From positions 22,196,432 to 22,260,431 of the forward strand of contig NC_092679.1 in assembly GCF_964355755.1 (NCBI RefSeq): 64,000 bases of DNA, read 5' to 3'. This document shows, one piece after another, positions 38,201-53,200 of this stretch (positions are counted from its first letter, which is position 1; every line of letters begins with the position of its first letter). The notes beneath the pieces are model-generated. The model had not been told where the DNA came from. It did no database searches and saw nothing but the letters and a program-made list of their open reading frames with translations. The translations under genes and the position numbers were made by a program. The stretch is from Antedon mediterranea. Taxonomy: Eukaryota; Echinodermata; Crinoidea; Comatulida; Antedonidae.

Positions 38201-41200
38201 TCTTATCTAAAACACACATCATTGTGTCACCTAGCAAGCTTAATGTAAAAAGATGATTACTACAAAACAACCAGGCTGGCAAGGCAAACATGCTACAATT
38301 ACAACTATTATAACACTCACATAAACATAATGAAATCATCAATATTTAACAATGTGTTAATGGAGGCATATATCTAATTTTTTAATGTTATATTGATTCT
38401 AGGGAGACCTCATAGGGCTTTAAAGGCTTACCAAATCAGATAGCCAATTACAAGGCAAGGTAGCGTTAATAATCAAGTATTTTGTATGAAAATTCAAATT
38501 ATCATTTACTGAACAGGTGTTTCATATCTGAGACATTACAAAGGTTGCGACTATAAAATGTACGATTTCTTTAGTTTGCGGGCAGTTCGGAAAATATTAG
38601 ATAATTTGATTTGTAATAGCCAAATGTTTTTATGTCGTAATAAATGACTCTAACATGTGCAGTTTGAAAAACACCGACCATCTTTTCGTTTTTTCTTCTG
38701 CGCGTGTTTGTGATAGGGCCTTTAGGAGAAGTGAATATGTGTCTCATCACATGAGGGACCCTTCAAAGGGATATCAGTGTTTAAGAGAGTTCGAATTGAG
38801 TGTATTGAAAGTTTATGAATATTTAGAATCATTTTTTGTGTGCTATATAAATTTATATATTTATTACAGTTTACTTAGAATAAAATAATTATTGAAAATT
38901 TTGTTTTCTTTGCTGCAAAAATATGAATAAAACAAACTAACAAATAAACTAACTAACAAACAGATAAACTCCTTTTAGGACACCCAGGGGGAAACTAATA
39001 TGAAAGCTACACTCAAAGCTACACTCATAATAAAGCTACACTCTTATTAGTACATTCTCATTAAGGATATATTTTCATGTGACACAAACAAGAGGCAATA
39101 ACACTTCAACCAACCTCTATTCATAGAACAACCTTTATTCATTGGAAGTTTCTCATTTATTTGAGAAACTTCCAATGAATTGTATATATACAACCAAATG
39201 TTGTATATATATATTATTGTTAAGATCAAATACTATTCAGGACACTCTTTGTTGGATCCCTAAGGTGTCCTCTTAATAGGGGTTCTACTTATTAATAAGG
39301 CTGTTTTAATACCTTACAAAAATAATGTTGAATACTAGATTTGAACTCGTCACTACGGACGAGTTAGGTTATCCGCAGCGCAAATGCCACGTGCACATCA
39401 TACGTTAGAATATTGCGCGCATAAATACGATTACACCATTGAAATAATGTTAGTGCGCTCCCAATTTTGCGTCACGTCAAAGTATATACGGTATACACTA
39501 TATTCTGTATACGTACTACATACAGTGCAGAATAGGTGAAAATAAGGGACCAAAGTTATTGACGCTTTTGGACATGATGACGTCATCACAATTTAAAAAA
39601 TGGTAGATTATGCGAAAGATAATTGATTGGCCTAGACAATATAACAAAATAGGGGGAAATGGAAGACGGATAAGTGGAGATGCGCTCTATTAAATGTGAT
39701 GAGCTATGCGAAAGAGACAAAAATCATATATTTTATATTCGAGTGGCCATACGATGACGTCACAATGTCCGGTTAGCCATATCGATGCATGATTTGTTAT
39801 CTAAAACTCATCTACTTCTAGAATCCTAAATTTTAAAAAAGTTCACCACGGAATATAGAATCTATGACTGTTTTGAAAAAGGCATAATTTTGACGAATTT
39901 TTGAACTTTTTTTATCAAAAACGCGCGCAAATTGTTCAATTCTACGTGCTCGTATGACGTGATTTTATGTCGAAATTGATTGAAAATTGGTAAATTTACT
40001 AGAAAAGGCTGAAAAAACAAAAATCAAGCAAAAAAAAGATGTTTTTGCGCTAAGTGCGCACGCGCGCGTAAAAAAAATGCGCATGCGTGGGAATATTTGA
40101 AATGTTCAAAATGACCTGAAACGCGTAGAAAGTTGATTAGAAATTGATTTTACGCATTTTGAAATTTTAAACGCGCGTGCGCGCGTAACTTTATGTAAAA
40201 CATGCCATTTTTAATCCATAGAAAGTTTGCGCATGATATAACTTAAATTTTCACCAAATTTCAATACAAAATGACTTTTAGTTTTTAATCTATGATCAAT
40301 CATTGAAATTCACAAAATCGCGCGTAACTTACGCTGCGCAACTCCAAAATCGTCCAAAAGCTTGGCTGCACATCTACGGCTATAGGTCAATCTTATGACA
40401 ACGTTATACAATCTTATGTTGCCCAGAATTAGAGATATGCGACCAACAAAATTCGTGGAAAGAAAGAAGAACATAGAAAAAAAAAACTAGATTTGAACTC
40501 GTCACTACGGACGAGTTAGGTTATCCGCAGCGCAAAAGCCGCGCGCACGATATAAGTTAGAATATTGCGCGCAGAAAAACGATTATGCCATTTAAAAAAT
40601 GTTAGTGCGCTCTCTATTTTGCGTCACGTCTGAGTATATACGGTATACACTATATAATGTATACGTACTACATACAGTGCAGAATAGGTGAAAATAAGTG
40701 ACCAAAGTTATTGACGCTTTTGGACATAATGACGTCATAACAATTTTAAAAATGGTGAATCATTCGAAAGATAATTGATTGACCTAGGCAATATATAAAA
40801 ATGGGGGAAAATGGAATACGGATAAGTGGAGATGCGCTCTATTAAATGTGATGAGCTATGACGAAAGAGACAAAAATCCTATATTTGATATTTGTGTGGC
40901 CATACGATGACGTCCCAATGTCCGGTTTGCCAAATCGATGCATGATTCTATATCTACAACTCATCTACATTCAGAATATGTAATTTTAAAAAAGTTCACC
41001 ACGTAGTTTAGAATTTATGACTGTTTAAAAAAAGGCATAATTCTGACAAATTGTTGAACTTTTTCATCAAAAATGCGCGTAAATTGTTTAATTCTACGTG
41101 CTCGTATGACGTGATTTTAAGTCGAAATTGATCGAAAATTTATGAATTTACTAGAAAAGGCTGAAAAAAACAAAAATCAAGCAAAAAAAGGATGTTTTTG

Positions 41201-50200: not shown

Positions 50201-53200
50201 GTCCGGTTAGCCATATTAATACATGATCCGATATCTATAACTCATCAACTTCAAGAATATGTCATCCACAAAAAATTGACCGTCCAGTTTAGAAATTACG
50301 ACTGTTTAAAAAAAGGCATAATTTTGACAAATTTTGACAAATTTGTTAACTTTTTCATCAAAAACTCGCGAAAATTATCCAATTCTACGTGCCCGTATGA
50401 CGTGATTTTAAGTCGAAATTGTTTAAAAGTTTGTAAAATTACTAGAAAAGGCAGGAAAAACATAAATCACGCGAAAAAAAAAGTGTTTTGCGCTACGTGC
50501 GTCCGCTTGCGTAAAAAAATTGCGCGCGCCTGGGAATTTTTGACATGCTTAAAATGACATGAAACGCGTAGAAAGTTGATTAGAAATTGATTTTTCGCAT
50601 TTTGAAATTTTAAACGCGCGTACGCGCGTAACTTCGTGTGAAACATGTCATTTTTTTTACACATAAAGTTAGCGCATGATATAAATTAAACTTATGCTAA
50701 GTTTCATTTGAAATTGTTATATGGTTTTCGATCTATGTTAAATACGCGAAAAACGTAAAAACGTGCGTAAGTCACGTTGCGTAACTCTGACGTCATTCAC
50801 AATAAGAGGGGCACAACTTCACGCGAATGCCCATATGTTGACAAAGTTATGAAATGTTATGTTTACATGTTTTAGAGATACGCTCTGCACAAAAATGACA
50901 GAAAGAAAGAAGAATACAGAAAAAAAAGAAGATGAAACAGGACAGTTACAAGGAGTTATCCGCTGAATGCGGATAACTAACTAGACATGAAACTCGTCAC
51001 TTTGACGAGTTAGTTATCCGCACCACGACAAACGCCACGTGCACGTCATACGTTGGAATATTGCACACAGATAAAGATTATGGCATTATGACAAGAACTG
51101 AAGAATACGATATGCTGTTAGTGCTGAATTCTGTCAATTTTGTGTCATATAGTATATACATGCAAACACTACAGTAAAATCTGTATACATATTACATACA
51201 GTGTAGAATAGGTGAAATTACGGGACCCGCCATTTATTCCAATTTTTAACATGGCGACGGTATCAAAATGAAACACTTAGATAGCAATTTCAGAAGGAAA
51301 TTATCTTAGGAACAACATATTAACGTGTAGAAGAAATTTGAATACGTAAAATATAGATGCGCACCCTTTTAAATGTGATGAACTATTACGCAAAATATGA
51401 AAATACAACTTTTTTTATTCAACTGGCCATATGATGACGTCACAACATCCGATTGGCAAAATGTTTACATGAATTCATATCTACAATCCAATAGCTTCCA
51501 GAAAACGTTTTAATCGTGATTATCACATTTTATTTTTACGAGCTATTACAGAATAAAATTTACTGTAAAGATGAAATTAATGACCCACGTAATTGAAATT
51601 TTTAGGCATGATGACGTCATAAAAATTAAAATATTTTTAACTCATGCGAAAGATAGTTGATTGACCTAGACAATATCAAAATCGGGGTGAAAATGGAAAA
51701 CGGATAAGCGTGATGCGGTCCATTGAATCTGATAAGCAATAACGAAAGAGACAAAAATCCTATTTTTTATATTCGTGTGGCCATACGATGACGTCATAAC
51801 ATCCGAGAGGTAAAAATTGTGCATGAATTTATATCTACAATTTATCTTCTTGCATAATAAGTTTAAACAAATTGAGGTCACCTTTGATCCTGAAGAGCTA
51901 TAATAGATTCAAAATAGGCATTATTTTGACAATATTTTATAACTTTTTCAACTAAAACGCGCGCAAATGGTCTCAATCAACGTGTTCATATGACGTCATT
52001 TTAATTTGAAATGATGTCAATCTTTTTTAAAATTACTAAGAAAGGCTGTGAAATCATAATTCAAGAGAAAAACACATGTTTTCATGCTCCGTGCGCACCT
52101 TACGCGTAAATTTTTTCGCGCGTGTGGGAATTTTTGACATGCTCAAAATGTCATGATCAGCGTAGAAAGTTGATTAGAAATTAATTTTGCGCATTTTGAA
52201 ATTTTAAATGCGCGTGCGCGCGTAACTTCTTGTAAAACATGCCATTTTTAATCCATAGAAAATTTGCACTTGATATGACTTAAATTTTCACAAAGTGTCA
52301 AAACAAAATTACGCTTGGTTTTTAATCTATGGTCAATCATAAAAAATCATAAAATCGCGCGTAAGTCACGTTGCGCAACTCTGACGTCATTCAAAAATAG
52401 GAGGTGCACAACTTCACGTATATGCCCATATGTTGACAAAGTTATGAAATGTTATGTTTACAAGTTTTTGAGATACGTGAGACACAAAAATGGGGGAGAA
52501 AGAAATAAGAAAAAAAAAAAAAAGTAACAGGACGATTACAAGGAGTTATCCGCTACTAAGCGGATAACTACTAAGCGGATAACTAATAATACAGAAAAAT
52601 ATTGATCCAATACAATCACAAGGAGTTATCCGCTACTAAGCGGATAACTAAAAAAAAGAGAAAAAAAAAAAAAAAGATCCTGACAATAACAAGAGGTTAT
52701 CCGCCAAGTGCGGATAACCAAAAAAAAAAAAAAAAGATCCTGACAATAACAAGAGGTTATCCGCCAAGTGCGGATAACCAATTAAAATGAGTGGTTTACC
52801 TTATATGCCTTCAACAGTGTTATGTGATCACTATTTCCCTCTGCGAACTCTTTTCTCTTTTTATCAGCTTCTTCTTTCTTACCAAACGGAGCGACCTAAA
52901 CAAAAATTTGCATATTTGTCAGCCATCTTACAGAAAGTTCAATTCCCAATGAGATCACCTCCCAGTCACTGTAAATGAGTAACTGGTTGAAAAATACCAG
53001 GTTTAAGCATGTAAAGGAGCTGACAGCTCATTCACCTCATAAGGAAAAAGGGATTTTTACATTTACTGTAACTTTATTTACTGTGGCATCGTGAGGTGGT
53101 TTCCCGAGGATCTATTGTTAGACAAGTATCAACGCTTCAAGTCAAAGAAGGTTATCAAAGGAGTGATAAACTTACAAAAGGAGAACGATAACTAAGAACA

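What the first reader, a model, noticed from the sequence alone, without database searches (positions are those of the whole stretch)
39335..52510. Nine-unit head-to-tail array of a Helitron-like element inside a DHX57 intron
Seen: nine units of 1.14-1.7 kb, each bounded by CTAG next to a small hairpin. On the minus strand all nine end hairpin, 5-6 nt, CTAG, T, and most begin TC. The stem is kept while loop and sequence vary (8 bp in units 1-2, 9 bp in 3-9). Known: canonical Helitrons have 5'-TC, a 3' hairpin and CTRR, insert between A and T, make no target duplication, and can form tandem arrays by failed termination. Inference: a new non-autonomous family that expanded in place. CTAG-T-TC junctions suggest read-through rolling-circle copying.
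Basis: partly seen in the sequence, partly recalled or inferred. Interest (0 to 1): 0.8.

Follow-up and report, generated by a model that had tools for sequence, protein, structure and literature searches.

The report
Jumping genes nested inside each other
What looks like nine tandem copies of a mobile element in a gene's intron reads as a tree of nested insertions, in which newcomers landed in or beside the start of earlier copies, and the same pattern recurs at many other places sampled in this genome, alongside helper elements that still have a long open gene.

Summary
The nine units are real, but they are not a read-through array. On the + strand each element opens with CTAG + hairpin (3' end) and closes with a palindromic subterminal repeat (5' end). 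The window has nine opens and nine closes that balance like brackets, with families matching from outside inward: A,A outermost, seven B inside. With inner elements removed, the five interrupted ones measure 1.21 kb (A) or 1.58-1.60 kb (B), like uninterrupted copies. Interrupted sites compared with uninterrupted pads show no target duplication or loss. In 12 mixed-family loci nested pairing agrees for 40 of 43 pairs; 0 of 200,000 shuffles reach that, first-in-first-out gives 17. Of 127 3' ends, 98 lie in or at another copy's 5' end, 29 in host or other DNA, none in a same-orientation body. Of 70 units, 68 have a closer relative in another locus. The likely partner is a 17-kb element with OTU, Rep, PIF1 and C-terminal endonuclease domains: a Helentron-type protein, but TTRG...CTAG ends. 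Self-insertion was proposed before for fungal Helitrons; the self-targeted tree is the new part. What guides newcomers is inferred.

The parts
39335..52781 (-). E1, outermost element (family A, 1212 bp of its own); 5' hairpin 52756-52778; contains E2-E9
   Evidence: CTAG+hairpin at 39335, matched 5' palindrome of type a at 52756, net length
40487..52721 (-). E2 (family A, 1209 bp of its own); 5' hairpin 52696-52718; nested in E1; contains E3-E9
41626..47864 (-). E3 (family B, 1583 bp of its own); 5' hairpin 47838-47861; nested in E2; contains E4-E6
43135..47790 (-). E4 (family B, 1588 bp of its own); 5' hairpin 47764-47787; nested in E3; contains E5 and E6
44663..46145 (-). E5 (family B, 1483 bp), uninterrupted; nested in E4
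46150..47734 (-). E6 (family B, 1585 bp), uninterrupted; nested in E4 beside E5
47865..52651 (-). E7 (family B, about 1.59-1.60 kb of its own); 5' hairpin 52625-52648; nested in E2, abutting E3; contains E8 and E9
49387..50980 (-). E8 (family B, 1594 bp), uninterrupted; nested in E7
50981..52586 (-). E9 (family B, about 1.59-1.61 kb; small duplication at its 5' hairpin), uninterrupted; abuts E8. Its first 1530 bp match C4:31633817-31635346 at a printed 100%
39335..39376 (-). Example of a 3' end: CTAG, spacer, hairpin AACTCGTC/GACGAGTT, subterminal repeat (GTTATCCGC on +)
52490..52544 (-). Example of an uninterrupted landing pad, of E9 (A-rich on +, T-rich in element sense), between body and 5' hairpin; limits approximate
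52800..52895 (-). DHX57-like exon (32 codons, [32 protein letters not shown]); the array starts 18 nt inside the following intron
   Evidence: sequence and translation; splice limits read by eye

Best explanation
The array is a tree of nine separate insertions of short non-autonomous rolling-circle elements, mobilised by a Helentron-type enzyme. SHOWN by sequence: each element is 5'-TTRG, palindromic subterminal repeat, T-rich pad, body, the same repeat again, hairpin, 5-6 nt, CTAG-3'. Newcomers join a T on their 3' side and an A or T on their 5' side (element sense), without target duplication, mostly in the T-rich pad 25-54 nt inside the 5' palindrome of a resident copy, or exactly at the resident's 5' terminus. 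The resident's 5' palindrome is thereby pushed outward, so 3' ends and 5' palindromes read like balanced brackets. In the window: host > E1 > E2 > {E3 > E4 > {E5, E6}; E7 > {E8, E9}}. INFERRED: every new copy brings a new pad, so nests grow as trees; the partner's protein acts in trans; and the preference (of the order of 150- to 550-fold over A-rich background, my arithmetic) arises because Rep, or a Rep-bound single strand, is held at the resident's 5' palindrome (the origin) and joins to T-rich DNA beside it.
For: Window word AABBBbBbbbBBbBbbaa balances 9/9 with all labels concordant. Over the fetched loci and window 74 of 79 labelled pairs concord; in 12 mixed loci 40 of 43 (0 of 200,000 shuffles, mean 23.3; FIFO 17 of 43); an earlier parse without families E, F and the continuations gave 31 of 32 in 10 mixed loci, shuffle p 3e-5, FIFO 15 of 32. 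Net lengths with inner elements removed match uninterrupted copies: medians A 1209 (n=3) vs 1218 (n=6), B 1591 (15) vs 1589 (33), C 1596 (7) vs 1591.5 (8); outliers exist (B uninterrupted 611-1878, B interrupted 1573-3176, C uninterrupted up to 4081). The 24-mer across the resealed site is in an uninterrupted pad for 20 of 26 interrupted, label-concordant residents (<=2 substitutions), 23 of 26 with A-runs collapsed and <=2 edits (no random control run); e.g. gaagaa^taatacag intact in L007, L011, L012, L023, split in L008. Of 127 3' ends typed A-F with >=160 bp upstream: 66 in a pad, 22 abutting a 5' terminus, 10 behind another 5' hairpin, 29 host/other, 0 in a same-orientation body. 68 of 70 units have a closer relative in another locus. 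On C1:0-23.06 Mb, where exact A and B ends were all listed, 108 of 145 have a neighbour within 3 kb (uniform mean 5.2, maximum 16 over 500 runs), none with an opposite-strand nearest neighbour. Partner: 3109-aa ORF with OTU, DUF6570, Rep, PIF1, C-terminal endonuclease between family-A ends.
Against: 5 of 79 labelled pairs are discordant (L004, L006, L010, L014, L037); lost or unfetched partners, or composites moving with two 5' ends, could explain them but were not shown. Predictions written before fetching: of 7 predicted closes reached, 5 right, 2 wrong (L010, L014); L012 had none in the stretch fetched. An age proxy expected to show inner copies younger did not: 15 of 33 parent-child pairs for, 18 against. 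L001-L017 were chosen by similarity to unit 9, which favours finding relatives elsewhere; many later loci were chosen as arrays. The largest arrays were sampled by one 10-kb piece (L048: 2 a-type closes for 8 family-A opens), so they may also grow by recombination. No test here shows what recruits newcomers, nor that the partner's protein moves the short units.
Confidence: 0.88

Rival explanations
1. Read-through (failed termination) or circle-derived rolling-circle replication made a concatemer in place, as the first reader proposed and as published for plant centromeric Helitrons.
For: Head-to-tail order, one orientation; 23 junctions where a 5' terminus abuts the next CTAG are what a circle concatemer would give. 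Plant arrays, many with multiple 5' but single 3' ends, are explained this way (Xiong et al. 2016, as told in passages of PMC12628747).
Against: 8 of 23 abutting junctions were counted as joining different families; one of these has an unlabelled hairpin and one is D beside a, so 6 are clear. The 7 same-family neighbour pairs with a measured identity are 78.6-97.2% alike. 68 of 70 units have closer relatives in other loci. Mirror order of 5' palindromes and restored pads are not predicted. In the window 3' ends and 5' palindromes are equal in number.
Confidence: 0.05
2. Unequal crossing-over between neighbouring copies enlarged the array after a few insertions (satellite-like growth).
For: A cluster of 31 ends exists; in L048 four of eight junctions share one pad type, so this may contribute in large arrays.
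Against: Crossing-over copies existing order and should not create balanced, family-matched nests with restored landing sites; L048 units are 82-96% alike; in the window the closest relatives found for all nine units lie elsewhere (unit 5 had no in-array match long enough to compare).
Confidence: 0.05
3. Nested insertion is right but there is no self-targeting: A/T-rich tracts are simply good targets and each element happens to carry one.
For: All 26 host left flanks counted end in A (+ strand) and are A-rich (60% A in the last 12 nt); pads are A-rich; Helraiser also prefers AT-rich sites (PMC4778049, passages).
Against: About 17% of position-strands in the window background meet the loosest rule, met by 26 of 26 host flanks, and 5% a stricter one met by 20 of 26. 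Yet 145 ends on C1:0-23.06 Mb fall in 58 clusters, so about 60% were added within clusters, while pads of about 60 nt make up roughly 0.1-0.4% of such sites (my arithmetic). 22 of 127 ends abut a 5' terminus exactly.
Confidence: 0.3

Closest known systems
Helentron / HINE (DINE-1 group), Thomas et al. 2014, PMC4067079 (abstract and outline, passages, sections 6 and 11 read); oyster Cg_HINE, PMC7492417 (passages)
   Same: Palindromic subterminal repeat near the 5' terminus and again inside a 3' hairpin, T-rich stretch, no target duplication, Rep-helicase protein with C-terminal endonuclease; OTU and a minus-oriented ORF are also reported there for some families.
   Different: 3' end is CTAG and most targets look like A^T rather than T^T; nested self-targeting as a main insertion mode is not described in what I read.
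proto-Helentron-Pi of Phytophthora infestans (PMC4067079, section 11 read)
   Same: 5' TT and 3' CTAG ends, A^T insertion, no target duplication.
   Different: It lacks the endonuclease domain that the likely partner here carries.
FoHeli / Helitron2-like elements of Fusarium (PMC5148889, passages and section 16 read)
   Same: Self-insertion, multiple short 5' termini and composite elements were proposed there; [quoted passage not shown]
   Different: There a few cases; here many loci of one genome with family-matched nesting order and empty-site support.
Canonical Helitron (Helraiser/Helibat, PMC4778049, passages read)
   Same: CTAG-3' with upstream hairpin, mostly A^T target, no duplication.
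   Different: 5' end is not TC; subterminal inverted repeats present; partner protein carries endonuclease and OTU domains.
Truncated Helitron arrays of plant centromeres (Xiong et al. 2016; seen only as described in passages of PMC12628747 and PMC5148889)
   Same: Tandem-looking Helitron arrays.
   Different: Many have multiple 5' but single 3' ends; equal numbers in the window here.

Membership tests
canonical Helitron | 5' terminus TC | tested here: not met
   Empty-site comparison puts the terminus at TTAG/TTGG
canonical Helitron | 3' hairpin followed by CTRR | tested here: met
   Hairpin, 5-6 nt, CTAG in 9 of 9 units; 791 + 1033 exact genome matches, 0 reversed
canonical Helitron | Insertion between A and T, no duplication | tested here: inconclusive
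   No duplication. Right-flank base T in 18 and A in 8 of 26 last closes (not all of these border host DNA); left-flank base A in 26 of 26 counted (partly other loci)
Helentron/HINE | Subterminal inverted repeats with 3' hairpin | tested here: met
   GTTATCCGC repeat at both ends; families E (GGCTATCGC) and F (GGTGATCATTT) each show their own repeat at both ends in one pair (L047, L024)
Helentron/HINE | Rep-helicase protein with C-terminal endonuclease in the autonomous partner | tested here: met
   PF14214, PF05970, PF03372 in order in one 3109-aa ORF scanned in two pieces
Helentron/HINE | Insertion preference for TT | tested here: not met
   5'-side base (element sense) is A in 18 and T in 8 of 26; TT would need T
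Helentron/HINE | Rep grouping with Helentrons in a phylogeny | not tested
   No tree was made
Rolling-circle read-through array | Units of one array more alike than units elsewhere | tested here: not met
   True for 2 of 70 units (sampling bias stated)
Nested self-insertion | 3' ends and 5' palindromes pair last-in-first-out by family | tested here: met
   74 of 79; mixed loci 40 of 43
Nested self-insertion | Inner copies younger than outer ones | tested here: inconclusive
   15 of 33 pairs for, 18 against, with a weak proxy

The most novel reading that the evidence does not exclude
A rolling-circle transposon that treats its own replication origin as its preferred landing site: Rep-bound strands are guided to the 5' palindromic repeat of resident copies of its own and related families, so most insertions nest in an earlier one, each newcomer supplies the next landing pad, and tandem-looking arrays are in fact insertion trees whose order can be read from the bracket order.
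Probability: 0.5. Interest if true: 0.7.

Novelty: new variant of a known kind. Interest (0 to 1): 0.58.

Why it matters
Head-to-tail Helitron arrays have been explained by rolling-circle read-through. Here the same appearance is produced by repeated self-targeted insertion, and a simple bracket test tells the two apart. The nests record which insertion came after which. The genome holds many long Rep frames (39 of 87 PF14214 rows have an open frame of at least 2,800 codons without a stop, my count; only one copy was read end to end), so target choice of an endonuclease-bearing rolling-circle transposase could be studied directly. Such nests may also seed satellite-like DNA near genes: this one begins 18 nt from a splice donor of a DHX57-like gene.

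Tried and rejected
Canonical Helitron with TC...CTAG ends: rejected on the empty-site comparison. In-place expansion and circle concatemers: rejected for the window. First-in-first-out pairing as a control: 17 of 43. Divergence to the nearest relative as an age proxy: no support. Reading the CTAG side of four more autonomous copies: all four stretches (L040, L042, L044, L046) fell in an internal satellite, so their 3' ends were not seen. Fetching continuations of four arrays closed one (L010, with one mismatch). Whether families B and C have their own partner was not followed. The species was not identified.

Parser versions and rows dropped: one search labelled family A wrongly as '?', corrected and extended. 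In one search one pair with type D was left out, and hairpins followed by a leader in the opposite orientation were skipped. In one search, 3' ends with under 160 bp upstream were skipped, and only same-strand matches to elements were sought. In one search, 26 of the 29 host/other flanks were used; L008- (inverted copy inside a body), L024-_1746 and L033- (flanks like a family-F pad) were dropped. In one search only units with 1000-1750 bp to the next feature were used (98 bodies); 70 had comparable relatives both inside and outside. In one search family-discordant pairs were skipped.
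Full report
WHAT IS THERE. Nine CTAG + hairpin boundaries lie at the stated places. A 300-nt block recurs nine times, the eight other copies 65-87% alike to the reference copy. Reading the + strand, each boundary is followed by the subterminal repeat GTTATCCGC. There are nine of these: at 46119; at 47709, 47764 and 47838; at 50955; and at 52545 (followed by TAC, with a small duplication), 52625, 52696 and 52756. The last one ends the array at 52781, 18 nt from the donor of a DHX57-like exon (by eye; gene supported by RWD and a sub-threshold CCCH match).

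BRACKETS. If the CTAG end is an opening bracket and the palindrome a closing one, the window reads AABBBbBbbbBBbBbbaa, with letters giving family by the bases beside the repeat (A/a: GGTTATCC, B/b: AGTTATCC). It balances, never goes negative, and every pair agrees in family; the two family-A opens at the far left pair with the two family-A closes at the far right. The tree is host > E1 > E2 > {E3 > E4 > {E5, E6}; E7 > {E8, E9}}. With inner elements removed, E1 to E9 measure 1212, 1209, 1583, 1588, 1483, 1585, 1602, 1594 and 1591 bp, like uninterrupted copies over all loci (medians A 1218, n=6; B 1589, n=33, range 611-1878).

TEST ELSEWHERE. A search of the genome (354 Mb, 18 contigs) with unit 9 scored 18 of 3299 candidates and gave 64 matches, many in arrays. 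I fetched 52 stretches. Over these and the window 74 of 79 family-labelled pairs agree (nested 26 of 30, innermost 48 of 49); in the 12 loci with more than one closing family 40 of 43 agree, against a shuffle mean of 23.3 (0 of 200,000 reach 40) and 17 of 43 for first-in-first-out pairing. The five exceptions are L004, L006, L010, L014, L037. Predictions noted before fetching continuations: 5 of the 7 predicted closes reached were right, 2 wrong; L012 showed none.

EMPTY SITES AND TERMINI. The pad ...gaaagaagaataatacag... is uninterrupted in L007, L011, L012, L023 and split in L008 as ...gaagaa|CTAG...TAA|taatacag...: nothing duplicated, nothing lost. Over 26 interrupted residents the resealed 24-mer is found in an uninterrupted pad for 20 with up to 2 substitutions and for 23 with A-runs collapsed and up to 2 edits; I ran no random control for this. 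So in element sense the element is 5'-TTAG/TTGG...CTAG-3'. The base right of the last close on + is T in 18 and A in 8 of 26; the base left of CTAG is A in 26 of 26 host flanks counted.

WHERE NEWCOMERS LAND. Of 127 3' ends, 66 lie in a resident pad, 25-54 nt from its palindrome, 22 abut a 5' terminus, 10 lie behind another palindrome, 29 in host or other DNA, none in a same-orientation body; an inverted copy (L008-) appears to sit in a body (its flank, read by eye). Many of these loci were chosen as arrays, which inflates 98 of 127 but does not favour pad over body. On C1:0-23.06 Mb, where all exact family A and B ends were listed, 108 of 145 have a neighbour within 3 kb, none with an opposite-strand nearest neighbour, against a mean of 5.2 for uniform placement. 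Host flanks are A-rich; 17% of position-strands in the window background satisfy the rule that 26 of 26 flanks satisfy, 5% a stricter rule that 20 of 26 satisfy. From these numbers I estimate a 150- to 550-fold preference for pads; recombination inside arrays could inflate it, and the background is that of this window only.

NOT READ-THROUGH. 68 of 70 units have a closer relative in another locus than in their own array, e.g. window E7 99.8% to L006 against 90.6% at best in its own array, and E9 99.7% to L001 against 93.8% (L001-L017 were picked by similarity to unit 9). 8 of 23 abutting junctions were counted as joining different families, 6 of them clearly. An age proxy gave no support to inner copies being younger (15 of 33).

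PARTNER. PF14214 gives 87 matches in the genome. The copy at C1:14501762-14519042 lies between family-A ends and has one ORF of 3109 codons with OTU, DUF6570, Rep, PIF1 and C-terminal Exo_endo_phos, the Helentron domain set (PMC4067079). The ORF runs on the strand that begins with CTAG, i.e. against the element sense. Of the 13 Rep matches on C1 below 23.06 Mb, 7 have a same-strand family-A end 9.3-13.0 kb on the CTAG side and 7 have one 6.8-7.8 kb on the other side, 6 having both, so partners seem to be hosts in nests too; the other 5 have none within 400 kb on either side and may belong to other families. The copy read carries direct repeats of about 1.1 kb near both ends, 80% alike, each similar to a whole short unit; the one at the 5' side lacks CTAG and hairpin. 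Four further copies show the 5'-side repeat, two of them (L043, L047) from the same starting point, two only partly covered. Loss of an inner 3' end in a nested composite could explain the repeats and perhaps the reversed ORF; PMC5148889 proposes composites of this kind for Fusarium (section 16). The short units could then arise by deletion between the repeats. This is inference.

MECHANISM. Shown: precise insertion, site choice, nesting, family mixing, ends shared with the Rep-bearing element. Inferred: use of that element's protein in trans; guidance by Rep on the resident's 5' palindrome. The exact abutting insertions (22 of 127) fall where Rep would be expected to nick a resident's 5' end, which fits that guess.

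LITERATURE. Seven full-text searches of the held library were answered. Self-insertion and multiple 5' termini are proposed for Fusarium elements (PMC5148889); dimers by insertion preference are reported for Drosophila elements (McGurk and Barbash, as told in PMC12628747). In these listings and the five papers opened in part (PMC4067079, PMC7492417, PMC5148889, PMC4778049, PMC12628747) I found no description of self-targeted nesting as the main insertion mode of a Helentron-type element or of the bracket test; most subscription papers are not in the library.

Noticed in passing
L040, L042, L044, L046: Autonomous copies contain an internal satellite with a period of about 345 bp, filling each of the four 2.5-kb stretches read.
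   Followed up: partly
L018+L019 (C1:14501500-14519500); L041, L043, L045, L047: Direct repeats of about 1.1 kb near both ends of the autonomous copy, each similar to a whole short unit; the 5'-side copy lacks the 3' hairpin and CTAG.
   Followed up: partly
L047, L048 (family E) and L023, L024 (family F): Two more families with different subterminal repeats (GGCTATCGC; GGTGATCATTT), present at both ends; family F's 3' hairpin in L024 differs by a paired change (ATTCGTC/GACGAAT).
   Followed up: partly
C1:22978922-23175497: Very large array: 31 family-A ends in one cluster plus four Rep matches further on.
   Followed up: partly
Host left flanks of 26 insertions: Besides A at -1 to -3, A is enriched at -8 and -9 (21 and 19 of 26), a possible second contact of the transposase.
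   Followed up: no
window 38000-38161: 17-bp minisatellite AGGGGTGTCCCACGAAT beside the array (its left extent was not measured).
   Followed up: no
L007 and L008: Copies in opposite orientation next to or inside others; the one in L008 appears to lie in the body of a family-B copy.
   Followed up: partly
C7:8918426, C1:19630172, C5:12374108, C1:29681497: Rep matches with higher PF14214 scores (185-196 bits) and shorter open frames (1132-1452 codons), perhaps ordinary Helitrons in the same genome.
   Followed up: no
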